Below the pieces are notes generated by a model. That model was not told the origin of the DNA. It saw only the letters and a program-made list of their open reading frames with translations, and made no database searches. Positions 3,001 through 22,529 of a stretch of 64,000 bases of DNA are shown in pieces. The stretch is from Podocnemis expansa (taxonomy: Eukaryota; Chordata; Testudines; Podocnemididae), in the NCBI GenBank assembly GCA_007922195.1, contig ML681989.1, positions 47,686,451 through 47,750,450 of the forward strand. The letters run 5' to 3'. Position numbers and translations under genes: made by a program. Each line of letters begins with the position of its first letter. The stretch's first letter is position 1.

Positions 3001-3440
3001 CTAAACAATCTAAATTCATGATGTAGATAAATCAAGATATCTGGCCGGTACCAGTGATTAATGTATTTGCTGATATTAACTGTTTTTAAAGCATTTGACA
3101 AATAATAAATAAATGAATGCTTTCTTTCAACATTAGAGGGCAAGTTAATTATACATGCATATATTTTAAACTCCACTTGTGTTTAAATTCCTAAATGATT
3201 GTTTTAGACTAAAATATGATACTGTATAGAATCTCATTTTAAATTATCTCTGAGCTTATAATTTTTCATTGTATTCTTATCAAATTCACACCCTAAAGTT
3301 GGGGAAAACAAAGTTATTTTACCTGAAATCAGAATTCTCCAAATTCACCATCCCAAATACATAGTGTTCAAATATGAGAACCTGGAAGTCTCTAGTCTTA
3401 GGTCTGAAAAGCAGCATTGTGTTTACCTTTTAGAATCAGC
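1..3440. other. AT-rich region without recognisable genes; LTR-like tail near 1600-1690
   Basis: I see no convincing coding exon here on either strand; the open frames are short and lack domain motifs. Around 1600-1690 the sequence has the look of the R/U5 end of an old LTR: a pyrimidine-rich stretch, the polyadenylation-type signal aataaa at about 1640 and a following T/G-rich segment. No partner LTR or internal retroviral sequence is seen beside it, so a solo LTR is only a possibility. From about 1800 to 3420 the DNA is AT-rich and looks like ordinary intergenic or intronic sequence. Confidence 0.4.
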
Positions 3441-7356: not shown

Positions 7357-7551
7357 ATTGGCATTCGTTAACTCTGTGGCTCCTGGTTTTTCATTGCTTT
7401 CCTTGTCTGTTCTTGAGTGGCAGACTGTAGCCGTATTTCCACCAGAGGCATTGGGCCATTTGGGTAGCACAGATCCCATCTCGCTACCTCAGTGTTTATT
7501 ATCTAATTAGACTGTGGGACAGTCTGAAACCAAGTCCTGGGGTAACAGAAT

Positions 7552-7569
7552 TGGCGCCCGAACAGGGAC
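7552..7569 (+). other. primer-binding site, tRNA-Lys3 type
   Basis: tggcgcccgaacagggac at 7552-7569 is, from established knowledge, the primer-binding site that pairs with the 3' end of tRNA-Lys3, the primer used by lentiviruses and mouse mammary tumour virus. It begins four bases after the LTR's terminal CA. It is intact over all 18 positions. It would prime minus-strand DNA synthesis during reverse transcription. Confidence 0.93.
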
Positions 7570-8439
7570 CCATACTGCCTAAATTGGAAATTGAATGGAC
7601 TTTGAAGCAATGAAATATCAAATAGAGATAGGTCCATAACAGTATCTGTTCCATCTAAATTGGGATCAGTCTAGATAAATTTAAAGATTGTGCCTTAAGA
7701 ACAGGAATGCCTTGCTTGATTAACAGATATTGGAGCAATGGAGTATAACAGCTGTTAAGGTAAACTACATTTAGAAATTGAGAATTCTAAAGCTTAATTG
7801 CAGTATTGCAATATTGATTTCTATGTGCACACATTGAGAGAACATCAACAGGTAAGTGAAAGATTTATTTTAACTAAAAAAGAAGTAGAGATTCTATTGT
7901 TTATTGGCAGTATTACTTAGAGATTGAATGCAGGTTAATTTCAAGGAATTATTGTGATCCAGAAAAAGTGATATACGATCTAGCTAGATAAGAAAATTCT
8001 TGTCTAGCTGGAGGACAACCCGTGACCAAGATAGTAAGGGTAAAGGACAACCTTGCTTGAGGAAACAGAGCCTGTGGCCAACTGGGAGTGGGACGCCGCT
8101 ACAGGTTGAGAAGGGTTTTTAAGTTAGTTTTGGAGGAATATGGTTGGTAGATAAACTAATTTAGGAGTCTTAGGTAGAAGCTTTTGGCTTTGATTTCTGA
8201 GGTTGGCCGGTGATAGAAATCAGCCCAAGGATTCCAGGGGTTACTTAGCCCCTGTATAAAATGAGTTTGTTATCCCTTGGTCTTGCACAAAGGGTGTGTG
8301 TCCTAATTTTATAGTTGAGGTTTACTTTTAAGAGGATTTGGCAAACAGGTAATTTTCCTGCTGGAAAAGGTGTCCAGTATTGTTGAATACGCCTGTCCTG
8401 CTGTAGGCACATATCTAATTAATTATTGTTTCAGAAATA
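7570..8439 (+). other. retroviral 5' leader, about 870 bases
   Basis: This stretch separates the primer-binding site from the first gag ATG. It should hold the packaging signal, although no specific motif can be named. It contains the consensus splice donor at 7851/7852 and several short upstream ATGs. It is unusually long for a simple retrovirus. Confidence 0.6.
7849..7857 (+). promoter_or_regulatory. major splice donor, CAG/GTAAGT
   Basis: caggtaagt at 7849-7857 matches the vertebrate 5' splice-site consensus at every position, with the cut after G7851. It lies in the leader upstream of gag, where retroviruses place the common donor for subgenomic mRNAs. It would join to the acceptors seen before each small gene and before env (16494, 17025, 17917, 18722, 19345). 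Confidence 0.75.
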
Positions 8440-10253
8440 ATGGTTTTTTTACGATGTCAAAGAGCCAGAAGCAAATGCGTGCTGAAGCTAGTTTTTGATA
8501 AATCTGACAAGATGTTAGGAGATAATCTGGGAGATTTTGTGCAGAAAACAGGCAGAGGTCCATGGAAGGAGAATGCCTTCATGGGACCAGGAGCCCTCCA
8601 GCAACTTTGTCAGCAATGGGATCAATGGATCCATGAGAAGAAGAAAGGAATTTTTAAGGGAGGACCTAGTAGAAAAGAAAGGAAGCAAGCTGCTATACTG
8701 GGGTTATATTTGGCAGCAACTATTTTATATAAAGAAGTGGGAAAAGTAATGGAAGAGAAATAGAAGTTACAGGAGGAAAAAGTAAAAAAGAGCACACAGA
8801 TCAAGAAATTAGAAGCTGAAGCTAATAATCTGAGATCAATAATACTAACACAGTCTACTCAGCTAAGGACATTTCAGACAGAGACTGAAGAAAGAAAAGA
8901 GGAGGTAGAAAAATGTATAGAGAATATGAAAAGTGGAAATGAATGGCTACGGATAGCCAAGCTGCAGTCAGAGTAATGCTTTCGGATGCTGGAGAAAAAG
9001 AAAGATAGAGCATATGCAGATTGTTTGAAGCAAAGAGAAGCCCTAAAAAGGGAATTAAGGGTCAGTAAAGGAGTGATTTCAGTAGTTAAAACCAACAGCA
9101 GTTATCCTTGGAGTAATGAAGAAATAGAGGAAGATGAAGATGAATGGGAGGACATTCAGGAAGACTTTGAGAAACCATACAGGAAAGCAGGATTATATAG
9201 TGCCTTACGAGAGGAATTGAGAGAATTGGATAGACCACCTCCAGTAACACCAGTTATAACTACAAAGGTAATAAAGACAACTGCAGCTGGTAATAAAGAA
9301 GGGACGGAGGAATGTAGGGAAGAAAGACGATATACACCTGAACAAATAAAAGCCTTAGGAAAGACATTAGATCCCTTAAATTGAAGTTCAGTGATTAAAT
9401 GGATAACTAGAACAGCAGGAATACCAGGATTAAAGGAGAAGACATCTCAGCAATCCTAAAAGAGTGTATGGGAATGGAAGAATTTGCAGGCCTTCGCTAT
9501 GATATACAAAATGGAGGAGAGAAGAAGAGGGATACAACAGAGTTGGAAATCTTGAAATTTTTCTTCCCTGGAGAGGATCCAATTGTATGGTTTCATAGGG
9601 AGAAACAACAAGCAGGAGAAAGACCTGAACCTTAGAAGAAATTGCTGTTTAAACACTCAGGGCTTGTAAGAACAGAGGATGAGGAGGAGGAACAGGGACA
9701 GACAAAGGGAACAGAAGTGGAATGTGAAGGAGAAATGTCTGTGGTAAAGGAAGTACAGACGCCGATAGACTATGATGTATATCAGTTCAAGAAGGCTTTG
9801 TTACTTGGATTCAATCCAACCACAAGAACTTTAATGGTGTCTACAAATCCATGGCACATGCCTTTAATGTGTATAGAAGCAAGAGCAAAAGAAATATATG
9901 AAATCCAGAGAGAAACCTTTCCTGCTCCAAGGAGAAAGATTGAGAAAGTAGCAACAGTGACTTTCTCTAATAATGGCCCACTAAGAACAGAAAATTCCTC
10001 CTCCAAGCAAATAAGGAATGGTAGGAACAAAGGATTAAATGGAAACAGGATTAGGACTCTGTACACTCGTTAGAGCAATGCCTACTCTGAAGATAAATCA
10101 GATCCTACAAGATTACGGGCATGGAGGAAGTTGCTTAAGTATGAATCTAGAGATAGGATTAATGGATTATCTACTGAAGAACTGCTAAGGAAATTAGCAA
10201 AACATGAAAGTCCACCTCCATCTGCTCCTCCTCTCCCAGAAAATCAAATATAG
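8440..10253 (+). pseudogene. gag: ERV gag (decayed), coiled-coil rich, no zinc knuckle
   Basis: This is the gag position, between leader and protease. Frame one runs from the ATG at 8440 to 9384, interrupted in frame by TAG at 8761 and TAA at 8974. It then shifts frame between 9384 and 9441 and continues to TAG at 10251, with further in-frame stops at 9633 and 10071. The segment at about 8760-9060 is rich in Glu/Lys with Leu/Ile spaced as in a coiled coil. An acidic stretch (EEIEEDEDEWED) follows at about 9115-9155. The part from about 9441 to 9630 reads like capsid sequence. The C-terminal part is Arg/Asn/Gly-rich and ends Pro-rich (about 10210-10245). No CCHC zinc knuckle is visible. A basic C-terminus replacing CCHC boxes is known from foamy viruses; the link here is inference. 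Confidence 0.7.
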
Positions 10254-10270
10254 GGAGTCCGAGCGCTCCC
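10251..10270 (+). promoter_or_regulatory. possible gag stop-codon readthrough site with small hairpin
   Basis: The gag-end frame closes with TAG at 10251-10253. The same frame then continues without a frameshift into the protease, which has no good ATG of its own. GGGAG (10253-10257) can pair with CTCCC (10266-10270) around an 8-base loop just after the stop. A same-frame gag-pol junction with UAG and downstream structure is the gammaretrovirus arrangement. The frame carries other decay stops, so this one might also be a mutation. Confidence 0.35.
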
Positions 10271-12209
10271 TATTTCCCCTATAACAGCCAAGGAACACTC
10301 TGGCTTAGTGGCACATTTAAACCAGGATAAATGGGGAAGACCTACAGTTCATGTAGAGTTTCAAAAGGGAGCGTTCGGACAAAATATGTTAATTGATACA
10401 GGTGCTGCTTTTTTCTTAGTTAGTACAAGGAAGAAAAATTTGTTTGGAAAACCAGTTTTGGTAAGAGATCTGCAAGGATTTAATGATGCTACAAGGAAAG
10501 TTTCATTCAGTTCGATAGTAAATTTCAAACTTGGAAATAAATATGGAAAAGGACAATTCGGCCTAATAAATTTAGATGGAAATGGAATATTAGGCAGGGA
10601 CATTTTGAGAAACCTTAAACTCACAACAGATTTAGTAAATAAAGTTCTATGGAAAATGCCTATAGGTGATGAAAATATTCCAACAGAATCAGAAATTATA
10701 GAAGCAGATTATATGCTGTCTGCAGTGAAAGCAGCTGAAGACATAAAATGGCCTGATTGGCCACCAGCCATCTTAGATATATCTTTAAGGCATAAAGAAG
10801 TGTGGGCAAAGAACAAGGCAGAATGTGGAAGGATCAACGCTGAAGTTTTAATCACAGGACCTGATCCCCCACCTCAAAAGCAGTACAGGTATCCTAAGGA
10901 ATCAGAAGAAAGTTTAGCGAAAACCATTCAAGGACTTATAGATCAAGGAGTGCTGGTAGAAAAACAAAGCAGAAATAATGCAGCAATTTGGCCAATTTTA
11001 AAGGCAGAAGGAAAGACATGGATAACAACAGTGGATTTTAGACCTTTAAATAAAGTCACGCCGATGACAGCACCAGTTGTGGCCAAATATCCTGATGTAA
11101 TGGCTTCCATAATAGGAGGAGCTAAATGGTTCACTGTGTTGGATCTGGTGAATGTTTTCTTTTCAATACCATTAGATCCAGACCGTTGGTACAAATTCAC
11201 ATTCACTTTTCAGGGAAGACAACTGTGTTTTTGCCGAGCCCCACAGGGATTTTCTTTGTCACCCACGATATGCCATATACATGTAATTAAAATGTGGGAT
11301 GACACGCCTAACAAGGATAATATCATATCTTATGTTGATGACATCTTGATCAGCACAAAAACCAGAGAAGAGAATTTAGAGATCTTGGATCAAGTTTTAC
11401 AGAAAATTAAGGGAACAGGATTTAAGGTGAGCCCTGAAAAAGCTCAGATTTGCCAACAGCAAGTGAATTATTTAGGAGTCACCTTAGGACAAGAAGGACA
11501 TTCTCCTGATAAACAAAGAGTAGAACTCTTGCAAAAATTGCCAGCCCCTACAGATGTTTCCACTCTCCAATCATTCTTAGGAATAACAAATTTTTCCAGA
11601 GATTTTGTGGAGAACTATGCAGAAAAAGCTTCTCCATTATACAAGTTATTGAAGAAAAGCACTCAATGGGAATGGGGTTCAGAACAGCAAAAAGCATTTA
11701 TACAGCTGAAACAAGCATTAGCACAAGCTCCAGCTTTAGCTTACCCAAAAGTAGGACAACCTTTTGTGCTTCAATTAACAACCACAAATACTGAAATGAG
11801 TGCAGTCCTTAGTCAAGATCATGGCACTGGAGTAAGACCTGTGACTTATGCATCCAGAAAACTCAATGGGGTAGAACAAGGCTTTATTCCATGTGAAAAG
11901 GAAGTCTTAGCCTTGGTATGGGCCTTGCAACATTGGGAATATTTAGTGGGATTATCCCTAGTACTGTTGAAGACTTCTCACTCTCCTGTAAAATATGTCT
12001 TGACTGGGAAAATCAACGATGGTCATGCATCCAGTCCTCAATTAGCTAAATGGACATTAGCTTTACTGAATAAGAATGTGAACATGGAAAAAGTTCCAGC
12101 ATTGTCTCCAGTCCCTTATGGACTTATTATAGAGGGAGAAAACATGAATGCCCGCTACCAGAGATTCTTCCAGAGGGCCCTATTCTGTTCCAAGGAGGAG
12201 AAGTATTAA
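10254..12209 (+). pseudogene. pol: ERV pol, protease and reverse transcriptase part
   Basis: One long open frame encodes retroviral protease fused directly to reverse transcriptase. Counting from the GTG at 10308, the protease active site LIDTGAA has its Asp at residue 30, and the conserved GILGRDIL block is at 93-100; both are intact. RT follows with motif A (FTVLDL, Asp279), motif B (APQGFSLSP, 311-319) and motif C (YVDD, 342-345). The connection domain and the start of RNase H come next. There is no dUTPase domain between gag and RT. The frame ends at 12209 because of decay; RNase H resumes just downstream. This 633-codon piece is the best preserved part of the provirus and would be the best handle for classification. 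Confidence 0.93.
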
Positions 12210-13594
12210 AGGAAATAAGGGCTGAAATAGATGAAATTTGGTCTGTGGATGGATCAAGATACCACAAGGAAGGACAAGCCTTTACTAGCTATGTGGCAAT
12301 CAGAATCTCTAATGAAAGTTATAAAGGGTCAATGTTCCCCACATTCAGCTCAAAGCAGCAGAGATAGTAGCTGTGATTGTAGTATTAGAAAATGTCCCAG
12401 AGGATAAACAAGTTGCTATCTTCACTGATTTGGATTGGGTATTAAGGGCTATAGTAGATTGGATGCCTCAATGGCAGAAGAGAGGAATGAAGTCAGCAGA
12501 TGGTAAATCCATAGGTCATTCTGAGAAGCTAATATATTTGTGGAATCTAACTCAAGGAAGATCACACCCAGTGTTAATGGGAAAAACAAAAGCACATAGG
12601 AAGAATACAGAAGAAGCTCAGTGGAACAATAAAGCAGATGAACAAGTCAAACTAGGAGCCAAGGAGGGGACTCCATTGGAACCCAAAGTAAAGTTTCCAA
12701 CTGTCCCTATAGCCAGCAGAGGAAAAGAACAAGTAGAAAAAGATGACTTACTTGCATTACAATGTAGAGATCTGGAAATAAAGAAGTTGGTCAAAAAAGA
12801 GGAATTCCAAGGATGGCGGATTAGACAACATGAAACAGGATTAGTATTGGCAACTAAAAAGGAAGATGACTTACCTGTATGGATAGTACCATCAGATCTT
12901 AGAGCAGAAGTGGTATCCTTAGCACATGATCATGGACACTTTGGCACAGACAAAACAACAGAAAGGCTACAAATGGCAGGTTGGTGGTCTAATATGAGGA
13001 CAGACATAGAGCAATATGTGAATAACTGTCTACCTTGTGCAACAAACAATGCAGATAGCAGAATATGAAAAGGAAAATTGAGACACCAAAGGACTGAAGG
13101 CCCATGGTCCAGAATAAAAATTGATTACATCGGTCCACTTTCCCAACAGGTAAAGGAAATAAATAATGCCTAGTAATAGTGGATCCATTCACCAAGTGGG
13201 TGGAAGCAATCCCCACTAAAAATAATACAGCTCTGACTACTGCAAGAGTATTAGTAGATCAAGTCTTTTCCAGATGGGGAATTCCAAGAGATTGACTCAG
13301 ATCAAGGTCCACATTTTGTAGGAGAAATAACAAAAGGATTATGCCAGGGATTTGGAATTAAACAAAGATTACAAATAGCAAGGGATCCTCAAAGTTCAGG
13401 ACAAGTAGAAAGAATCAACAGAACTATAAAACAGCTTTAAGAAAAGTAGCTAACTTACAAGAAAAAACTGGGATCAAAAGTTACCTTTAATATTAATGGC
13501 TATTAGAGTAACCATAGCATTTCATGGGGTAACACCATTCAAGGAGATGACTGGAAGAAACAATTGAATGCCAGAGCAATGGTGGTTAGCTGGG
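12210..13594 (+). pseudogene. pol: ERV pol, RNase H and integrase N-terminal/core part (frameshifted)
   Basis: RNase H is recognisable by SVDGS at about 12243, FTDLDW at about 12423 and NNKADE at about 12630, with one frameshift near 12345. The integrase zinc-binding domain follows: a His pair in HDHGHFG (about 12928-12945) and CLPC (about 13030-13040). The catalytic core has Asp in IDYIGP at about 13122, Asp in DQGPHF at 13300-13302 and Glu in GQVERIN at 13408-13410. The last two are exactly 36 codons apart, the D,D-35-E spacing of retroviral integrases. Several frameshifts and stops lie between 13065 and 13500. The gene is cut at about 13594, after a Pro-Glu-Gln-Trp-Trp stretch, by the CR1 copy A insertion. 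Confidence 0.88.
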
Positions 13595-13671
13595 AATCAT
13601 AGAATCATAGAGTTGGAAGGGACTTCATAGGTCATCTAGTCCAACCCCTGCCAAAGGCAGGACCACTCCCA

Positions 13672-14804
13672 CTAAACCATCCCAGTCATGGTTTTGTCCA
13701 GCCGGGCCTTAAACACCTCCAAAGATGAAGACTCCACCACCTCCCTCGGCAGCTCATTCCAAGGCTTCACCACTCTCCTAGTAAAAAAGTTTTTTCTAAT
13801 ATCCAGCCTCGACCTCCCTAACCGCAACTTGAGAACATTGGTCCTCATTCTGTCCTCTGTTATTACCGAGAATAGTCGAGCTCCATCTTCCTTAGACCAT
13901 CCCTTCAAGTAGTTGAAGGTTGCTATCAAATCCCCCCTCAATCTTCTCTTCTGCAGACTAAATAAGCCTAATGCTTTCAGTCTTTCCTCATTGGGCTTGT
14001 GCTCCAGCCCTTTAATCATTTTGGTTGCCCTCCTCTGAACTGTCTCTAGCATGTCCCTGTCCTTTTTGTAGTGGGGAGCCCAAAACTGAACACAGTATTC
14101 TAGATGTGGCCTTACCAGTGCAGAATAGAGGGGAATGATCACATCTCTTGATCTGCTGGTAATACTTCTTTTGATGCAGCCCAGTATGCCATTGGCCTTT
14201 TTGGCAGCAAGAGCACACTGCTGACTCATATCTAGCTTCCCATCCACCATGACCCCCAGGTCCTTTTCTACACTGGCATGCTTCCACTTCCATAATGGAG
14301 CTCTGAGCAGTCATAGAGCTCTTTTACATATAACGCTACTCCTCCCCCTCTTCTTCCCTGCCTGTCTTTCCTGAACAGTTTATACCCATCCATGGCAGAG
14401 CTCCAGTCGTGCACACTATCCCACCACGTCTCCGTTATTCCTATAATATCATAGTTCCTTGTCTGTGCTAGTATTACCAATTCTTCTTGCTTATTTCCCA
14501 GGCTCCTCGCATTAGTGTACAGGCACCTAAGATACCCGGTCGATTGCCCTACTTTGTCATGTTGATTTCCAGTTCTATTATATAAACCTCCTTGCATTTT
14601 TTCTTGGAGTTCTCCTCCCCCACTCTCCTCACATATTGGGGATTCAGTAGAGCATTTAAGACATTTATTTGATTCCCCCCCCATGTTCCAACTACCTTCT
14701 CTTTTATTGCTGTTGATACAGTCCCAGCACCCCCCAAGTTCCATCCCTTCCCCCAGATCACCCATATTGTTACTTACCTGTGGGCTTTGGTCTCCTTCCC
14801 CCAT
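13672..14804 (-). pseudogene. CR1 ORF2 remnant: endonuclease start joined to C-terminal domain
   Basis: The N-terminal frame (14804 down to about 14270) contains the APE-type endonuclease opening CLYTNARSLGNKQEEL and ITETWW. It breaks after a HYGSG phrase near 14272. The next recognisable residues ([12 protein letters not shown], from about 14260) belong to the far C-terminal part of ORF2, past the RT fingers and palm. That part continues through [11 protein letters not shown] and [16 protein letters not shown] to 13672. Comparison with copy B shows the end of the endonuclease and all RT catalytic motifs are absent, so this copy could not have moved by itself after the deletion. Confidence 0.85.
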
Positions 14805-14809
14805 TGAAC

Positions 14810-15873
14810 CTAGTTTAAAGCCCTCCTCACTAGGTCAGCCAGTCTGTGCCCAAACACGCTCTTCCCCTTCCTGGACAGCTGAAGGCCATCTCTGCCTATC
14901 AATCCTCTGTCCTGAAACAGGACTCCATGGTCAAGGAAGCCAAATCCCTCCTGACCACACCATCTTTGCAGCCAGGCATTCACCTCTGGATGCATCTGTC
15001 TCTCCTCAGGCCTCTAGCCCTGACTGGAAGGATCAAGGAGAACACCACCTGTGCTCCAAACTCCTTCACCCTCGCTCCCCGAGCCCTGAAGTCACCTTTG
15101 ATCTGCTGAGGATCACGTCTCACAGTATCATTGGTACCCACATGGATAAGAAGCATGGGGTAGTAATTTGAGAGGAGGATGATTTTAGACAATCCCTCCA
15201 TTACATCATGGATACGGGCACCTGGCAGGCAGCATACCTCTCTAGAGGCCTTGTCAGGGTGACAGATGGGCGCCTCTGTTCCTCTCCGGAGTGAGTCCCC
15301 AATCATCACAACCCTACGTTTCCTCTTAGGTGAGGTGGCTGTGGTCTGCCCAGCCTTTGGGGTGGATGGCAACTCCTCTACCTCCTTTAGTGTGTCCAGC
15401 ACCGCATAACGGTTCCTCACCACAGTGGATGGTGGGATGTGAGCAGGCGTGGAACACTGTCTACTGCCAGAGGTGACCAGCTGCCAGTGTCCTTCCTCTG
15501 CCATAGGCATTCCATCCATTTCCAGAGCTGTGGCAGTAGCCCTTGGCATTGGGATAGGGACCTCCTCCTTGCAGGTCTCATCGTGGACACTGTCAAGGAA
15601 CTTTTCAAGGGCATAGATACCCCTGAGTCGTGACATCTCCTCCTGTAACTCTCCTACCTGTTTCTTAAGAGATGCCACCAGAAGGCACCTATCACATAGG
15701 CTCATCTCCCTAGCCTGATCATCAGTGGCAGGAAAATGAAGGCCACACTCCCTGCAATTCCACACCAGGGTCTGGGTGGAGATATCCATGGACAGACAGT
15801 CTGTCTGGCTACAAACAGAGGCAAAGGAAACAGCAGGGGTGCTGGCTCCAGCAGTACAGCTCCTCTTCACCAT
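14810..15873 (-). pseudogene. CR1 ORF1: zinc-ribbon, coiled coil and SGNH-type esterase domain
   Basis: Starting at the ATG at 15873 (good context, MVKRSC), the protein first shows two Cys-x2-Cys pairs (CRECG and CDRC) typical of the CR1 ORF1 zinc module. A short coiled coil (KKQVGELQEEMSRLR) follows, then a Pro/Ser-rich linker, a basic KRKRR stretch and an esterase domain. The esterase blocks are GDS (VMIGDSL) and GTND (HVGTNDT). The last block reads RDGLQLS in a second frame (14995-14810), after a frameshift near 14985. In this family the position after DGL is normally the catalytic His, so this copy has Gln there. ORF1 proteins bind RNA and act with ORF2 in retrotransposition. This copy is broken. 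Confidence 0.8.
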
Positions 15874-15932
15874 CTTGGCCTCACCAAACTCCCTCGTAAA
15901 CTCCCCTGTTCGCAAGCTCCCTCTGGTCGCTC

Positions 15933-15991
15933 AAGCAGTGGCTTTTAAAGGCCTTCTCNNNNNNNNNNCAGTGGCTTTTAAAGGCCTTCTC
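15933..15991. other. assembly gap (10 N) flanked by identical sequence
   Basis: Ten Ns occupy 15959-15968. The 23 bases cagtggcttttaaaggccttctc end just before the gap and start again immediately after it. This is the usual look of an unresolved overlap or a collapsed tandem repeat in the CR1 5' UTR, so the real distance here is unknown. The open frame that crosses the gap is not a gene. Confidence 0.95.
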
Positions 15992-16049
15992 TGCCTAGGT
16001 CAGCCCTTGCCCCTTATTAGTCACACAGGGGCAGGCAAATCCCCCACAT

Positions 16050-16409
16050 GAGTTACAACCAAAAGTATTAAATGATCAATGGATGCAACAACTTTTGAAA
16101 TCAATTTCTGAAACCCACAAACAGATAGCAATAGCTTTGAAAGCTAAAACTCAGCAGATGGATCAAAAGCTAGGACCAATTCTGCACCCACAGGAATGGC
16201 AAATAGGAGATAGGGGTATGCATAAGCAGTTTAAAGAAAAGTAACATGTTATTTGTCCTGTGTGGGAAGGACCTGTTAGGACTGTTAATAAAGCTAGTCC
16301 CACAGTATATATTTTGGAAGTATGACAAGGAAAAAGAAAAGTAGCAAAATGGTTTCACTCTTCACAGATGAAGAAATGGAAAGGAAATCCCACAGTAAAA
16401 GAAGGGTAA
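16050..16409 (+). pseudogene. pol: ERV integrase C-terminal domain
   Basis: The integrase frame resumes to the right of the CR1 with ELQPKVLNDQW. It continues through a helical region and a DNA-binding SH3-like C-terminus recognisable by IGDRGMHKQFKEK, CPVWEGPVR, TVYILEV and KWFHSSQMKKWK. A TAA at about 16244 and a TGA at about 16323 interrupt it, and the frame closes at 16407-16409. Together with the upstream part this completes pol. The following 90 bases are non-coding and lead to the first accessory splice acceptor. Confidence 0.85.
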
Positions 16410-16481
16410 AAATGCTATCTTGAGTCAGTGTAAATAGTGTATATAATAGCTCAGAACCAGAGTCTAAGTATAGTTAAAATT

Positions 16482-16494
16482 ACTATCCTTATAG
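16482..16494 (+). promoter_or_regulatory. splice acceptor 1 (before accessory gene 1)
   Basis: The run actatccttatag ends in AG at 16494, only 5 bases before the ATG at 16499. It is a pyrimidine-biased stretch and the weakest of the five. Its value comes from recurring in the same position before each downstream gene. Confidence 0.5.
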
Positions 16495-16498
16495 GAAA

Positions 16499-16954
16499 AT
16501 GGAAAGTGATGGCAAAGACAGTGGATATGGAAGTGCTAGAGAGGAGTGAAATGAATTAGGATTACTAGATGGAGAAGTTGCTAAACTGATAGAAGATACG
16601 GAACATAGATGGGTCATTCCCACAGTTGTTATAATAAGGGAAGAATTTAAAAGTATATATTTTACCATATACACAGGAGCCACCTTCTCAATCCTAAATT
16701 GCCATGGCTCAAACATCAAAGGATTAGCCACAGAAGAAAGAATATGGGTTCATTCTTCTGGAGGATGGGCTGCAATTCCTATAAGTGTCTCTATGGCTGT
16801 ACAGATAGGAAAAAGAATGATGAAAGGACGTTTTGGGCTTATGGATTTAGGTCCAGGACAGCATAGTGTATTAGGACTAGATGCCACCTATGTAATGAAA
16901 TGTAAAATAGATAGAAGAAGAAGAAGATTGATAGAAGATAATGATGATGATTAA
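16499..16954 (+). pseudogene. accessory gene 1: pseudo-protease, Asp-Thr-Gly changed to Tyr-Thr-Gly
   Basis: The frame from ATG 16499 to TAA 16952-16954 is 151 codons, with one in-frame TGA at 16547-16549 and no indel. A short polar N-terminus precedes a retropepsin-like core. The strand segment FTIYTGATFSIL lines up with the pol protease active site LIDTGAAFFLV, with Tyr replacing the catalytic Asp. The later segment FGLMDLG...VLGLD lines up with FGLINLD...ILGRD. Retropepsins act as homodimers with one Asp from each chain, so this protein could not be a normal protease. The C-terminus is very basic, then acidic (Arg5, then Asp-rich). It lies directly after integrase with its own splice acceptor. 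I infer descent from the protease by duplication. Role unknown; modulation of the true protease is one idea. Confidence 0.7.
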
Positions 16955-17012
16955 GAATAGAGTAATAAGTAGTAAAGGTGAGTAAAGGTGATAGATAATC
17001 AGGTTATTTCTT

Positions 17013-17025
17013 TTACAAAACCTAG
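17013..17025 (+). promoter_or_regulatory. splice acceptor 2 (before accessory gene 2)
   Basis: A pyrimidine-rich stretch (ttatttcttttac at about 17004-17016) leads to cctag ending at 17025, 6 bases before ATG 17031. This is good acceptor geometry. Confidence 0.6.
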
Positions 17026-17030
17026 AAAAC

Positions 17031-17660
17031 ATGGCAGAAAGATTTGAAGAAGTCTCCTCCATAGAAGACGATGAGGTTTTATGACTATTAGATCACAGAG
17101 GAACAACACCATTAAGTCAAGAAATTACAAGAATTACATGAGAATTAAACTCAGAGGAAGTTCACCCATTCAGACCATCCTGGATGGAGGAAATAATGCA
17201 AGATCCACCATTTAATGCTCTTGCTGAAACGGAAGAAAAGGCCGTTCAAACAGAAAAAGCTCCTGGGATCATAGGTTTGAAATGTGGAATCATTCCTTTA
17301 TTAAGAGACTGTGTCAATAGGCCAATGATAGCAGTACATATTGAAATACAAGATGAGGAAATAAGTCAAATCTACTACATTGACTCAACTACTCCACCGT
17401 CTATAATAAATACCAAAGTAATACCACAAATTCTCCTTTATAGATCGACAAAGAAGATTCAAGTGAGCAGGATGTTAGGAAAACTGGAAACCTCAATTCC
17501 CATGACAATGCACTTGGGAAAGAGAAGAATTCCCAACGTGGAATTTGGTCTAATAGAAGTAGACAAGACCCCATTTGGAATAGCAGGAATTGAAGTCCTA
17601 AGAGCTCTTAAATGTTTCCTGGATTTTGGAGGAAATTTCCTGATTTATCAACTTAACTGA
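17031..17660 (+). pseudogene. accessory gene 2: pseudo-protease with Asp-Ser-Thr
   Basis: The frame from ATG 17031 to TGA 17658-17660 is 209 codons, with in-frame TGA codons at 17082 and 17139 and no frameshift; the last 158 codons are open. After an acidic N-terminus of about 90 residues comes the retropepsin-like core. The strand IYYIDSTTPPSII aligns with the protease active site; this is the only one of the four copies that keeps the Asp, but Thr-Gly has become Ser-Thr. The second block FGLIEVD...GIAGIEVLRAL aligns with FGLINLD...GILGRDILRNL of the pol protease. The copy is about 30 percent longer than copy 1 because of its N-terminus. It lies between accessory genes 1 and 3 with its own acceptor. 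Function unknown. Confidence 0.7.
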
Positions 17661-17941
17661 AATTCTAAGAAAATATATATATAAAAATGTTAGACTAAAT
17701 GTAGAAATCAGTTAAATAGCTATAGCAATTGAAATAAGGAAAAAAATTAGGACATTATAGTTTAAAAGAATAAAAATGAGAGTAGAATGTTTAATTTTTG
17801 CAAAAGATATTTATATATATGGTAGTAAATGCTTAATAAATAGTTACTAAAAGTTGATAGTCAGTAAAAGTCTGATAGTTTGAATAACAAATTTTATTAT
17901 TCTAATTTTTGCTCAAGGACAGAATAGAGAAAGGGAAAGAG
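17661..17941 (+). other. AT-rich spacer between accessory genes 2 and 3
   Basis: About 280 bases of A/T-rich DNA, with tatatata near 17671-17682 and several taa-containing phrases, and no open frame of interest. It would serve as intron sequence upstream of acceptor 3. Confidence 0.6.
17893..17917 (+). promoter_or_regulatory. splice acceptor 3 (before accessory gene 3)
   Basis: A long pyrimidine-rich tract (ttattattctaatttttgct) ends in caag at 17917, 25 bases before ATG 17942. The acceptor context is strong. Confidence 0.6.
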
Positions 17942-18474
17942 ATGGATATGGCTGAGGGATAGATCAGAGAAAGGGATTTGATTGAAGCAGAAGACGCAGA
18001 AAGAGGACAAGACCAGGCAGCCTTTCCAAAGCAAGGATTTATAGACGAATATGAAACGGAGGCGGAGGACTGGGAGAGAGACAGAGACCCTATTGTGCAA
18101 ATATTTAGATCAGGAAGAGGATCTCTGACTGTTCCAGCGCTTCTGGAATATGAGGGACTGACGACAACAGTTTTTTTTTTTTTTTAATTTTGATTCCCAG
18201 TTCCACACATTCCATTTTAAATGTTAATCAATTATCCATTCCTCCTCCCCAATCTGGTCTGGTAAGATATTACCAGAGGCCTACAAAGCAGCAGCCCATT
18301 TTAATGCCCTTGAGCCATCCCATTCCAGTAGAAATAGGACAAAGAAGAGTAAATCATCAATTTGGAATAATTAATGTAAACCCAAATGTTAGGAGCACTT
18401 TGGGAGAAGACCTTCTCTTAAAGATAAACGGAAAAATAATTGACATCGATAGATTAGAAATTAGGGAAATATAG
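17942..18474 (+). pseudogene. accessory gene 3: pseudo-protease with Pro-Ser-Ser; broken at a T15 run
   Basis: The reading starts at ATG 17942 (a second in-frame ATG is at 17948), with a TAG at 17960-17962. An acidic, charged N-terminus is followed by the core strand LTVPALLEYEGLTTTVF. A run of 15 T (18171-18185) then breaks the frame. In the next frame the sequence continues LIPSSTHSIL, which aligns with the protease active-site strand, with Pro-Ser-Ser at the Asp-Thr-Gly position. It ends with FGIINVN...STLGEDLL, aligning with FGLINLD...GILGRDIL, and closes at TAG 18472-18474. The T-run probably grew from a few Phe codons. The tract VPALLEYEG also aligns with IPTVVIIRE of copy 1. Catalytically dead by sequence. 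Function unknown. Confidence 0.65.
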
Positions 18475-18731
18475 GAGAAAGTAAGATAAGATTGTTAACA
18501 AGTTTAAGTTTTAATGTTTGTTATTAGTATTAGGAATAGGTTTCAGTTTCAGTTTTGTTATTGATATTATAGAAAATTTGATAGGCATTTCAATGGAAAT
18601 AAATAAACCAATAAGTTATGTTAAATAAATTTGTTTAATGACAGAAAGACAGACTTTGTGTTTATTTCTATATAGATAATTATAAGAAGGTAATAAAGGG
18701 TTCTATATCTTTTAAATTCCAGAAAAGTCAT
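18475..18731 (+). other. AT-rich spacer between accessory genes 3 and 4
   Basis: 257 bases, rich in T and A with several taaa motifs and no credible open frame. It ends in the acceptor for gene 4. Confidence 0.6.
18700..18722 (+). promoter_or_regulatory. splice acceptor 4 (before accessory gene 4)
   Basis: ttctatatcttttaaattccag ends in CAG at 18722, 10 bases before ATG 18732. It has a good pyrimidine tract with the preferred C before AG. Confidence 0.65.
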
Positions 18732-19226
18732 ATGGCAAAACAATTAATGAGGATTGAAATGCTAGAAGCTGAAGAAGCAGAAGCGCCAGGGAGAGAAGCA
18801 GTATTACAAACTCAAGAAGCTCAAGGACAGGAAGATGTTGTTAATCATATAGGAGAAGAACCTGAGACAGGACCAATCATTAGAATTATCCAAAACCCCA
18901 TTACTCAGTTTATGATGATCCCTGTGAACATATATCATTCACAGCACATACAGTTGGAGTATTTTAATTTAGTGCCTACTGAATCTAGATCTTTAGTAAA
19001 TTTGTATAGAATGGAAGAATTGCCTCCTGTAACAGGTCAAGTAAGATTCCACAGGACCAAAATATATTTAACTCATCCCCTTCATATACGAATTGGAAGG
19101 AAGAGTATCTATCACAGGTTTGGAGTTATGTTTTGGCCGTACTCTACATTAGGGATTGTTGGAAAAGACATAAAAGGTACAGTGGATGAAGTTCACTTGG
19201 AGATTCAGGAAGTACCAGTGAATTAG
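18732..19226 (+). CDS. accessory gene 4: intact pseudo-protease ORF with Pro-Thr-Glu
   Basis: This is the only accessory frame with no lesion: 164 codons from ATG 18732 to TAG 19224-19226. The N-terminal 50 residues are Glu/Ala/Gln-rich (EAEEAEAPGREAVLQTQEA). The core strands follow: MMIPVNIYHSQHIQLEYF, then LVPTESRSLV at the position of the protease LIDTGAAFFLV, and RFGVMFWP...LGIVGKDI at the position of FGLINLD...GILGRDI. The catalytic Asp-Thr-Gly is Pro-Thr-Glu, so it cannot be a retropepsin. It has its own acceptor and sits just upstream of env. An open frame in an otherwise decayed provirus could be chance or a sign of later retention. A diverged dUTPase was considered and does not fit. 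Function unknown. Confidence 0.7.
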   Translation: MAKQLMRIEMLEAEEAEAPGREAVLQTQEAQGQEDVVNHIGEEPETGPIIRIIQNPITQFMMIPVNIYHSQHIQLEYFNLVPTESRSLVNLYRMEELPPVTGQVRFHRTKIYLTHPLHIRIGRKSIYHRFGVMFWPYSTLGIVGKDIKGTVDEVHLEIQEVPVN

Positions 19227-19321
19227 ATATCAGTTTACTGATGGAAAAAGAAATAAATAAAAGAACTCTTTTAAGGTATAAAATGAATAATCTCATTATT
19301 GTTAAAAAAAAGAAGGAAGGG

Positions 19322-19345
19322 TGCTTTGTTTTTATCTCATTTCAG
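19322..19345 (+). promoter_or_regulatory. env splice acceptor
   Basis: tgctttgtttttatctcatttcag ends at 19345. It is a textbook pyrimidine tract plus CAG, 11 bases before the env ATG at 19356. Confidence 0.75.
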
Positions 19346-19621
19346 AATTAAATTAATGGAAGATGGATTGGTATTCATACTTGCTCTTTTGGGTCTTCTT
19401 GCACTCACATTGCTGCTATGGTGGTGCAAACAAGACAGTCCTGACTGCAACTATTGAATGGAGCAAACAATCAGAAGATGATAGCATCGTGTATGGAAGT
19501 ACAGAAGAATGCATTTTCTTTCTCACATCATTAAAATAATACAAAATTAGAAGTACGTATGGGACCAATACGAATTATCGAGTCCATAGTCAAAAACAAA
19601 GGGTTTTCTGCAAATAGTGCC

Positions 19622-20275
19622 CATAGATGTTATCTAGAGTTTAATAACCAAGGAAGAGGATTTGTAAGTATTGTAGAATCCAGCAGAATGCTACCACAAC
19701 CCTCTAGTTGTACATGGGACAATACTAAAAGGCAAGAGAAATTGATTGGAAAAATAACTAGATCAGGATCATGGCAATGTGCCCTTAATCAAAATTCGAT
19801 CTTAAGGAAAACAATAACCACTGAATTGAAAGTAACACAGCCACTAGACAGACAAGACATAGTCACTAGTGTCCAGTGGAGTCATTCTAATGCAGCAGAA
19901 ATAGTAAACCAAGTGCAAAGTTGTGAATTCACAATTCAAGAAAAACTTAGAAAGGAGGTAATAAGGAAGAATAAAAGTCTCACTATTATGATGGGAACAT
20001 TAGAAACTATTATGCAGAGGAACAATGTGAGAAATACTGCTACACAGTTTTCATACAAATGCTCTCTTAAATTTGACACTGTAGAACGAGGAAGAATTTT
20101 AACTCATCCACACTATTATTCAGCTCCTAAACCCTCCACTTGTGAATAGGATAACAATTTAAATAAAGGGAAAATTTCTGGAGAAACATTAATGCCAGGA
20201 CATTGGCAATGTGCCATTATTGAAGGACAAAATGTAGTATCCAGATCAGAACAAAAGACAGTTCTAATCGAAAAG
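19622..20275 (+). repeat. tandem duplicated domain in the env surface subunit
   Basis: Copy 1 (about 19622-19843) and copy 2 (about 20051-20275) share the order: aromatic-x-Cys, a short strand, Pro-Ser-x-Cys-x-Trp-Asp-Asn, a Gly-Lys-Ile phrase, then Gly-x-Trp-Gln-Cys-Ala. In copy 2 the Trp after Cys-x is replaced by the TAG at 20147, while its neighbours Asp-Asn are kept, which supports a TGG-to-TAG change. The Cys/Trp spacing suggests an Ig-like or similar beta domain, but that is inference. Confidence 0.7.
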
Positions 20276-22252
20276 GAATGTAAATGTAGTATTTTGGTTT
20301 GGTATCTTCCACTATGGAATAAAGGGAATGCACAAGAACTATATGTTAGGTGGTATCATAATAATTACAGTGATACAATGCCTAAATTTAGCTTGGAAGA
20401 TCCAAAAGGGAATGTCAGCACACACTCAGTAACCTGTGAGACAAAAATCAGTATAATAACAAAGGAACAAATAGCAGACTTTATTCCATCAATATATAAA
20501 TATTTTATTCAGGAAAAGGAGTGCCAGACAGGATCATACCATCAAACATTATTCAATTATTTTTGTGAGACTTATACAAAAATAGTTAGACAATGTGGAA
20601 GTGGAACTTGGAAGATCCTCGGTGAAGACTTTAGTTTCACTTTTCCTTTTACATGGGTATCCAAGCCCATCATAACAAGTATCAGTCCATATGTGGTAAA
20701 AGAAGATATTAAAAAACAATTGATAATAAATCCCACATAGTCTTTGAAAAAGGTAGTATTAGATTTACCACCAATAGCTCTGATAAAACCACAGTGTCAA
20801 GAATATACCGAACCTTTGGAGAAAGGATGGAAAAGGTGGGTATACACTAAGGGATTTCCAGACAATACCAAAACCAGAAGGAGAAATGTTATAGACACAG
20901 CTGTAGGAGGAGCAGGAACAGGATTAGGAATTCTCAGTAGTATAGATGTAGAAATTTTGGCAAATAGATTAAGCATATTAGGACAACAATTAGGAAATTT
21001 AGCAAAACCATCACAAACTTCGTTGACAGAGATGAGTACAAGCCAATATATAGTTGCTAAATTGTTTCCAGAATGGGAAAAATCCCATAAGGAGGATCAT
21101 TTAAAAATTTTGGATGCAATAGAAGTGCTGCAGTAAAATTTATCTTTAGCATTATCATGCATCCAGGCACAATCATGGATGAATGATATAATGAAGGATT
21201 TTATCAGGGATGGAATAACTGGAAAATTGCCCTTGGAAACCAAAAATGCAATATGGAAGCATGCTTCAGAGTTTGAGACAGAATTAAACGGATGGTGGAA
21301 AATGATTAATTTTACTTATAATCCACAGGAAAATCAAATTACTACATATATACTTATGATTTCCAAAGCCCAAATTGAATGGATATCTCTGGTAATTGGA
21401 CTAGGAATAAACTTAAATTCCACAGTAATGCAACCAATTGGATATAAATTATGGGCATTAAAGCAAAAAGATACCTGGAGAACTATAGAGCTTGAACCAT
21501 GCACTGAAGAGCCAAATGGTGTTGGATATGTTTGTAATAATAATGCTATTCAAACTTGTGATGTTTGTCTCAACAGGAATCAAGGAGAATGCCAATATCA
21601 ATTGGATCCACGACCCTCTAATGAATCAATGGTGGTGTACGTTGGAAAAACCTGTATATGCATCAGAAGCTGGTGCACAAAATTTAAAGTGAATTATGCC
21701 TATGATATTATGCATAATCCATATGAAAATCAATGTTTATGTAACGTGACATCTTTAGTAGGATGTGATGTAGAATATACTTTACCTCCAACAGTTAGTG
21801 AGGAAATTAAGGAACGATTCCAAATGTATGAGCAAATCAACCCACTTCCATTAGGACCAAATATTAGTATAATTAAGAAATTAATAGACCACCCAGATCT
21901 AAAGAAAGAGGTAGAAAAAGTAAAAGAAACAGCACAAAGTGTGCTACTGACCATGCGTCATTCAGCAAAACAGATTGAACAAGTAATGGAACGTATTGAA
22001 AAGATCTCTAAACATAATTGGTGGAGAATATTTCTAGGATTATCCCCCACAGCCACAAAGTATTTAAATGTTTTAGTGCATCCAATTGTAATATTATTAA
22101 TAATGCAGATTGCCTTGGCTATTGCACTTATAATGGTTACATTTTGGATGAGAAGAAAAATTAACAAATTAAAATTTATGTTATGGTTTTCAGGCAGCAG
22201 AATCCACCTGAACTCCCCCACAAACTCGTGTGGTAAAAAATCCATCTATGAC

Positions 22253-22447
22253 GACTTGTGCCAGTATGAAGATATGACAGCTCGCTGTCCTTGCACGGAC
22301 AGCCTTGAGGTCAAACTGGACAAGAAACTCAAAAAATGGATAATGATGGAAGATTTGTGCCGATGCAAAGATACCATAGCTCGGTCTCCCTTAATGGAGA
22401 GCCTTGAGCTTCAATCAGACAGCAGTCTTCATAAAGAAATCATGGTA
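22253..22447 (+). repeat. tandem duplication in the env cytoplasmic tail
   Basis: Unit 1 (22253-22351) and unit 2 (22352-22447) both encode Asp-Leu-Cys, then an acidic and Thr/Ile-Ala-Arg stretch, then Glu/Asp-Ser-Leu-Glu and a Lys-rich end. The unit length is about 33 codons. They differ at many positions, so the duplication is old. Confidence 0.75.
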
Positions 22448-22529
22448 TGAGTAAACAAAGTCTCGTAAGAATGCTGGACTTGAAAAACAAGTTTTTAAAC
22501 CCAGCTGCCACCACCTACAATGTTGAAAG

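What the first reader, a model, noticed from the sequence alone, without database searches (positions are those of the whole stretch)
16499..19226. Four consecutive pseudo-protease accessory genes between pol and env of an endogenous retrovirus
Four adjacent small frames each carry two blocks that align with the same virus's protease. Active-site strand: LIDTGAAFFLV in pol; TIYTGATFSIL, YIDSTTPPSII, LIPSSTHSIL and LVPTESRSLV in genes 1-4. Second block: FGLINLD..GILGRD in pol; FGLMDLG..VLGLD, FGLIEVD..GIAGIE, FGIINVN..TLGED and FGVMFWP..GIVGKD in genes 1-4. The catalytic triplet has become YTG, DST, PSS and PTE. I know of no described retrovirus with a protease-derived accessory array. Because retropepsins are dimers, dead paralogues could pair with the real protease and regulate it, or they may have taken on new host-facing roles.
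Basis: partly seen in the sequence, partly recalled or inferred. Interest (0 to 1): 0.93.

Follow-up and report, generated by a model that had tools for sequence, protein, structure and literature searches.

The report
Retrovirus accessory genes from dead proteases
In an old retrovirus family scattered through a (likely reptile) genome, four to five neighbouring genes are relatives of the virus's own protein-cutting enzyme that lack its intact cutting site yet show the mark of selection, and they likely serve the virus as binding proteins rather than as enzymes.

Summary
The four frames between pol and env are relatives of the same provirus's protease (PR): leave-one-out profiles find each at E 2e-12 to 8e-6, and the four together find PR at 2.5e-7 among 447 window frames. 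The host assembly gave 130 matches to gene 2. Forty fetched regions reveal a sister lineage with FIVE such genes (a-e; window genes = a, b, d, e); 20 of 40 show all five. DTG/DSG is absent in 143 of 143 frames, while the psi-loop glycine is kept in 127 of 130. Median dN/dS is 0.21-0.34 for a, b, c, e; PR 0.18. Gene d looks swapped between proviruses about 90% identical elsewhere. A model of the gene 1 domain matches retropepsins. So these are real, selected protease paralogues without the catalytic triad, probably spliced accessory genes. Function is inferred: most likely non-cutting, host-facing binding proteins. Ten searches of an open-licence paper library showed no described case.

The parts
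7552..7569 (+). primer-binding site, tRNA-Lys type (motif recalled)
   Evidence: single exact match in the window
7849..7857 (+). candidate major splice donor in the leader (MAGGTRAGT match)
   Evidence: one of two matches in 7500-22450; the other is at 16975
10326..10655 (+). retroviral protease domain (IDTG active site) inside open frame 10308-12209 with RT and RNase H
   Evidence: Pfam RVP 17.3 bits (below its cut-off 20.7), RVT_1 97.9 bits
13653..15915 (-). LINE insertion (CR1-like by recall; ends approximate) splitting the integrase region; not part of the virus
   Evidence: inverted copies elsewhere in the window, antisense frames
16478..16494 (+). candidate splice acceptor of gene 1
   Evidence: score rank 24 of 1153 AGs, 5 nt before the ATG
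16499..16954 (+). gene 1 (= gene a): acidic tail with DSGYGS, then protease-like domain 16586-16930 (triad YTG); stop at 16547
17009..17025 (+). candidate splice acceptor of gene 2
   Evidence: rank 31 of 1153, 6 nt before the ATG; weaker in relatives
17031..17660 (+). gene 2 (= gene b): acidic tail, then domain 17280-17657 (triad DST); stops at 17082 and 17139
   Evidence: 130 matches in the genome
17901..17917 (+). candidate splice acceptor of gene 3
   Evidence: rank 15 of 1153, 25 nt before the ATG; none reaches the threshold within 30 nt in relatives
17942..18474 (+). gene 3 (= gene d): acidic tail, domain in two overlapping frames 17963-18187 and 18154-18474 (triad IPS); stop at 17960
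18706..18722 (+). candidate splice acceptor of gene 4
   Evidence: rank 7 of 1153, 10 nt before the ATG
18732..19226 (+). gene 4 (= gene e): complete open frame, 164 aa, acidic tail then domain 18888-19223 (triad VPT)
   Evidence: 150 matches in the genome, cross-matches to c and d included
19356..22450 (+). env (broken): best-scoring candidate acceptor at 19345, several separate frames, membrane segment near the end
   Evidence: no significant Pfam match in the three frames scanned

Best explanation
These are four to five adjacent retroviral genes, related to the virus's own protease and lacking its catalytic DTG, that show purifying selection and likely act as spliced accessory proteins whose dead protease domain binds host factors instead of cutting. 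Shown: homology to PR; the array in many copies of one lineage; no DTG/DSG in any frame seen; kept psi-loop glycine; open frames with median dN/dS 0.21-0.34 for a, b, c, e; an acidic tail plus, in b-e, a basic domain. Predicted: retropepsin fold (gene 1 domain only) and separate splicing. Inferred: absence of cutting activity; birth by duplication of PR followed by tandem duplication (c, d, e last); and the role: tail motifs and the old substrate cleft or dimer face as docking surfaces, with gene d exchanged between viruses as in an arms race with the host.
For: Homology: (profile-profile to PR: a 91%, b 95%, e 61%, d 36% probability; 40 column-shuffled controls per gene at most 2.3%). Pfam reads an intact gene b (L018) as Asp_protease_2 just above its cut-off (24.5 vs 24.3 bits) and near RVP's (19.5 vs 20.7). 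Fold: gene 1 domain pLDDT 68.5, pTM 0.61; all 33 PDB hits at E<=1e-3 are DDI1 or retroviral proteases. Array: 20 of 40 fetched loci show all five families; L014 and L018 have each of the five in one open frame. Lineage trait: 42 of 54 PR copies at 53-99% identity have a b/e-family match 1-16 kb downstream on the same strand, the nearest at 4.1-5.2 kb in 27 of the 42; 0 of 20 PR copies at 31-39%. Triad lost: DTG/DSG 0 of 143 frames; psi-loop Gly 127 of 130. PR of the same lineage keeps IDTG (2) or is one change from it (3), in the 5 found. Selection; PR yardstick 0.18. Host-facing: window and L018 proteins are 43-53% identical (60% in one d frame) while PR is 68-74% identical to the window in most sister copies; gene d 56% between L014 and L018 whose a, b, c, e are 89-94%, with saturated dS in d; gene a tail [DE]SGYxS in 9 of 9 copies with that stretch.
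Against: No expression, protein or interaction data. Acceptor scores come from a matrix I made from the recalled consensus with a threshold set afterwards; in relatives they hold for a (17 of 22), c (14 of 23), e (17 of 22), but b reaches the threshold in 3 of 26 and d in 0 of 12 within 30 nt. The gene 4 fold job failed (pLDDT 35); the gene 1 job had PR as one of its five rows, and its four other models were poor (at most 38.1). Gene c is no better than controls against PR (2.2%) and is tied in through e (about 31-38% identity in gene 4 cross-matches of about 174-aa frames; tree). 12 of 54 PR copies show no b/e match within 16 kb and were not examined. Low dN/dS would equally fit a role inside the virus. 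Gene b keeps the aspartate in 37 of 40 frames, so inactivity of b is inferred from the lost TG.
Confidence: 0.55

Rival explanations
1. Internal regulators: one or more of the dead paralogues pairs with PR monomers as inactive heterodimers and delays or tunes Gag-Pol cutting.
For: Retropepsins are obligate dimers (established knowledge). Genes a and b are the closest to PR; a keeps TG with the aspartate replaced (NTG in 21 of 28 frames), b keeps the aspartate in 37 of 40. The proteins end at or soon after the last strand of the domain.
Against: The residue after the catalytic position (Thr 26 of HIV, the dimer 'grip', recalled) is Pro in 34/40, 21/25, 21/25 and 23/25 frames of b, c, d, e. Five families and swapping of d are more than a dosage regulator needs. 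No complex was modelled.
Confidence: 0.22
2. RNA-binding helpers: the basic domains (median pI 9-11 in b-e) act as nucleic-acid chaperones in a virus whose Gag lacks zinc knuckles.
For: Domain pI medians b 9.2, c 11.1, d 9.8, e 10.1; no CCHC motif in the three plus-strand frames of 7900-10320.
Against: PR itself has pI 10.3, so basic charge may be inherited; gene a's domain has median pI 5.7 in relatives; the acidic tails would oppose RNA binding.
Confidence: 0.08
3. Captured host retropepsin-like gene (ASPRV1 or DDI type) rather than a duplicate of the viral PR.
For: Nearest folds in the PDB are DDI1 domains; weak profile hits to DDI1 and ASPRV1 (E 0.17 at 15.1 bits and E 0.89). ERVs with host genes between pol and env are known (PMC4299795).
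Against: The accessory profile scores the same virus's PR best (25.5 bits), though a related PR (P0007, 15.6 bits) is no better than DDI1. Profile-profile ties a and b to this lineage's PRs. The tree places b next to PR, though weakly (73/45). No intron was looked for and no reptile host gene was compared.
Confidence: 0.05
4. Chance or decayed junk: no gene function, only old duplicates in one provirus.
For: Three of the four window copies have stops or a frame break.
Against: Open frames in many copies, median dN/dS 0.21-0.34, shared loss of the triad; the four stop-free runs of 194, 172, 134 and 106 codons were not reached at their rank in 500 shuffles.
Confidence: 0.02

Closest known systems
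Lentiviral accessory genes (vif, vpr, vpx), recalled
   Same: Several small genes between pol and env, likely from spliced RNAs; paralogues (vpr/vpx)
   Different: None is known to me as derived from the protease; no array of five paralogues
Fish foamy-like ERVs with acc3/acc4 between pol and env and paralogous acc1a/acc1b (PMC5512871, passages)
   Same: Extra genes between pol and env; tandem paralogy of accessory genes
   Different: Those proteins are reported without known conserved domains; the paralogous pair lies after env
ERV4 of crocodilians and turtles (PMC4299795, abstract, passages and sections 6, 7, 8, 12)
   Same: No zinc finger, no GPF/Y, no dUTPase, turtle hosts; insertion of a gene between pol and env in one ERV group of that paper
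   Different: The insert described there between pol and env is host KIT-ligand (nectin3 replaces env in another group); the parts I read mention no protease-like accessory genes
Retroviral dUTPase, once called 'pseudoprotease' (PMC4531489, reference-list passages)
   Same: Old idea of a second protease-like gene in retroviruses (recalled)
   Different: It proved to be a dUTPase (title in that reference list); no dUTPase match here
Chelonid herpesvirus 5 HP36 (PMC3462797, passage; BFVD V5NXH4)
   Same: A protease-like small gene directly upstream of a retroviral env-like gene, in a turtle virus; a predicted fold of matching length from that virus (F-pol, 150 aa) matches the gene 1 model
Pseudoproteases such as iRhoms (abstracts in a search listing, and recall)
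   Same: Protease fold kept, catalysis lost, works by binding
   Different: Cellular rhomboid fold, not retropepsin

Membership tests
Retropepsin (aspartic protease A2 / RVP) | Catalytic D-T/S-G | tested here: not met
   DTG/DSG in 0 of 143 frames; D alone in 37, all gene b
Retropepsin (aspartic protease A2 / RVP) | psi-loop hydrophobic-hydrophobic-Gly near the C-terminus | tested here: met
   Gly in 127 of 130 frames
Retropepsin (aspartic protease A2 / RVP) | Retropepsin fold | tested here: inconclusive
   Gene 1 domain matches (PR was a row of its alignment); gene 4 job failed; genes 2, 3 and a-e of the sister lineage not folded
Retropepsin (aspartic protease A2 / RVP) | Pfam aspartyl protease model above its cut-off | tested here: inconclusive
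   Gene b of L018 passes PF13650 (24.5 vs 24.3); b of L029 does not; the four window frames and the eight a, c, d, e frames scanned have no aspartyl-protease match
Retropepsin (aspartic protease A2 / RVP) | Dimer that cuts peptides | not testable with these tools
   needs protein
Retroviral accessory gene | Lies outside gag, pol, env; here between pol and env | tested here: met
Retroviral accessory gene | Conserved open frame under selection | tested here: met
   a, b, c, e; d: dS saturated, dN 0.23-0.51 between types, so not measured for d
Retroviral accessory gene | Made from its own spliced RNA | tested here: inconclusive
   Acceptor-like sites strong for a, c, e, weaker for b, not found within 30 nt for d; no RNA data
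dUTPase ('pseudoprotease' of old) | dUTPase domain | tested here: not met
   No dUTPase family in Pfam scans at E<=1
ERV4 | No CCHC zinc knuckle and no GPF/Y motif | tested here: met
   No CCHC in plus-strand frames of 7900-10320; the only GP[YF] in 12301-16500 is inside the LINE; gag and integrase are broken in this copy
ERV4 | RT falls in the ERV4 clade | not tested
   No ERV4 reference sequences at hand; nearest named pols are turtle proteins
ERV4 | 5-bp target-site duplication | not tested
   No 3' LTR found in the window

The most novel reading that the evidence does not exclude
A retrovirus lineage built its whole accessory toolkit out of its protease: five dead retropepsins with different targets, one of them (gene d) traded between viruses as a cassette in an arms race with the host, and a relative of which may have been carried into a turtle herpesvirus (HP36) next to an env gene.
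Probability: 0.35. Interest if true: 0.95.

Novelty: categorically new. Interest (0 to 1): 0.88.

Why it matters
Many retroviral accessory genes have no traceable parent (general knowledge). Here the likely parent still sits upstream in pol of the same provirus, and tens of copies record how a viral enzyme was (by inference) duplicated several times, lost its catalytic triad in different ways, and stayed under selection. It gives a direct case for asking how an enzyme turns into binding proteins, whether dead retropepsins regulate live ones, and what host factors such a fold can engage.
Full report
WHAT IS THERE. The window holds one decayed provirus: a tRNA-Lys-type primer site at 7552-7569 (type recalled) and a consensus splice donor at 7849-7857, a broken gag, an open protease-RT-RNase H frame to 12209, an RNase H/integrase piece to 13068, an antisense LINE insertion of roughly 13.65-16.06 kb, four small frames, and a broken env to about 22450. 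No 3' LTR was found. Among 50 pol relatives in a 5.8-billion-protein database the best are from turtles: Pelusios castaneus 52%, Caretta 45%, Pelodiscus 55-56%. RT scores best against gammaretroviral and foamy structures (virus names by recall). The window lies in an unnamed 2.39-Gb assembly.

THE GENOME SHOWS A LINEAGE OF SUCH VIRUSES. Gene 2 has 130 matches in the host assembly (150 of 229 candidates scored), gene 4 has 150 (150 of 246 scored; cross-matches to other members included) and PR 150 (150 of 285 scored). I fetched about 5 kb around 40 of the 130 gene 2 matches. A few are close kin of the window copy (L009-L011). Many belong to a sister lineage, about 38-53% identical to the window in genes b and e, with five protease-like genes in a row. 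Stop-to-stop frames are about a 156, b 214, c 174, d 161-213, e 173 aa. Twenty of 40 loci show all five families, fragments included; L014 and L018 have each in a single open frame. Window genes 1, 2, 3, 4 are a, b, d, e; c is not found in the window or in its close kin L009 and L010. Of 54 PR copies at 53-99% identity, 42 have a b/e-family match 1-16 kb downstream on the same strand (nearest at 4.1-5.2 kb in 27) and 12 have none and could not be examined; of 20 PR copies at 31-39%, none has (74 of 150 PR rows used; distant arrays may be beyond detection). So the array is a trait of a lineage, not a feature of one copy.

DEAD ENZYMES, KEPT FOLD MARKS. Across the loci and the window, the triad at the catalytic position is: a, 28 frames, NTG in 21 and no D; b, 40 frames, D in 37 but DPT, DPA, DST and the like; c, 25 frames, RPN in 18; d, 25 frames, APS in 15; e, 25 frames, IPS, VPT, MPT and others. 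DTG or DSG: 0 of 143. The psi-loop glycine is kept in 29/30, 37/38, 19/20, 21/21 and 21/21. PR of the same lineage was found in 5 of 10 regions: IDTG in L049 and L058, one change away in L052, L056 and L057. Loss of the triad is therefore ancestral within each family, and different between families. That none of them cuts is inferred, least safely for b.

SELECTION. Among copies with a frame covering at least 80% of the L018 gene, median dN/dS is 0.34 for a (9 copies, 36 of 36 pairs), 0.25 for b (22 copies, 150 of 231), 0.21 for c (12 copies, 65 of 66) and 0.23 for e (16 copies, 92 of 120), over pairs with dS 0.05-1; one pair, in b, is at or above 1. In b and c it falls as dS grows, as expected if constraint acted while the viruses replicated and not after insertion. 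PR in six copies (15 pairs): 0.18. Gene d is different: only 1 of 36 pairs was usable (0.80); between types its silent sites are saturated while dN is 0.23-0.51. L014 and L018 are 92, 94, 92 and 89% identical in a, b, c and e but 56% in d; L019 and L025 share the L018 type (96 and 89%). Gene d thus looks exchanged between viruses as a unit. I read this as diversifying pressure on d; a recombination scan was not run.

ARCHITECTURE. All five families have an acidic tail (median pI 4.1-4.4) before the domain, and the domain is basic in b-e (medians 9.2-11.1; gene a 5.7) in the 8, 17, 8, 8 and 16 frames measured. Gene a's tail carries [DE]SGYxS in 9 of 9 copies that cover it (in one the start Met is gone, so the script counted 8) and DSGYGS in the window at 16517; 0 in 30,838 background residues. 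It resembles the DSGxxS degron bound by beta-TrCP (recalled), which is a hint only. Genes c, d and e share an acidic-Trp motif before the domain (12 of 26, 12 of 22, 18 of 25 frames). Candidate splice acceptors precede the starts of a, c and e in most copies (17/22, 14/23, 17/22 against 349 of 4378 background ATGs), are weaker before b (3/26 over the threshold, though an AG 5 nt upstream is common) and absent within 30 nt for d (0/12).

ORIGIN. Profile-profile comparison ties a and b to PR at 91% and 95% probability, e at 61%, d at 36%, c at 2.2%, with 40 column-shuffled controls per gene at 2.3% or less; c is linked through e. The tree groups c+d+e (97/98), a (99/99) and b (99/98), with PR apart (89/71) and b nearest PR but weakly (73/45). 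An intact b passes the Pfam Asp_protease_2 cut-off by 0.2 bits. The simplest history, inferred, is duplication of PR into the pol-env gap, then tandem duplication, with c, d, e youngest.

FUNCTION. Not shown. Proteins that keep fold marks, lose the triad, stay under selection, sit where accessory genes sit, diverge faster than PR (43-53%, one d frame 60%, against 68-74% for PR in most sister copies) and in one case are swapped between viruses are most simply host-facing binding proteins. My confidence in the array and its protease kinship is about 0.97; in the host-facing role about 0.55.

NOVELTY. Ten full-text searches of an open-licence library (listings only except for the papers named) showed no protease-derived retroviral accessory gene. 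The nearest cases are fish foamy-like ERVs with unidentified acc3/acc4 between pol and env (PMC5512871, passages), the crocodilian ERV paper with a captured host gene between pol and env (PMC4299795, abstract, sections 6, 7, 8, 12 and passages), and Ovex1, which is reported without obvious accessory ORFs (PMC2717909, passages).

Noticed in passing
Chelonid herpesvirus 5 HP35-HP36 (not in the window): A turtle herpesvirus has a small pepsin-like gene (HP36) directly upstream of a retroviral env-like gene (HP35) (PMC3462797, passage), with Ka 0 between strains (PMC5824677, passages); the BFVD entry F-pol (150 aa, probably HP36) matched the gene 1 model at E 2.8e-4. Could be a capture from a virus of this kind; sequence not at hand.
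   Followed up: partly
L014 and L018, gene d (L014 reversed 2731-3345; L018 2810-3343): Gene d differs (56%) between proviruses that are 89-94% identical in the four other genes: likely cassette exchange.
   Followed up: partly
window 16517-16534: DSGYGS in the tail of gene 1, kept as ESGYES in relatives; resembles a beta-TrCP degron (recalled).
   Followed up: partly
window 8428-8440: A strong acceptor-like site (AG at 8434) also precedes the first gag-like ATG at 8440, 6 nt upstream.
   Followed up: no
L011 2276-2518: An extra short protease-like frame between b and d in a close relative of the window copy; perhaps a remnant of gene c or a second d.
   Followed up: no
G000 C432:312-518, C612, C56, C100, C102 and others: Several partial PR matches cover only residues 1 to about 73-83 at 52-59% identity, as if one deleted or diverged subfamily had spread.
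   Followed up: no
G000 C269:1041585, C80:18975410, C106:10810692 and nine more: PR copies with no b/e-family match within 16 kb downstream: array lost, swapped, truncated or diverged; could not be fetched.
   Followed up: no
window 13653-15915: Antisense LINE (CR1-like by recall) inserted in the integrase region; related copies at 24.5-25.5 kb and 41.6-52.6 kb.
   Followed up: no
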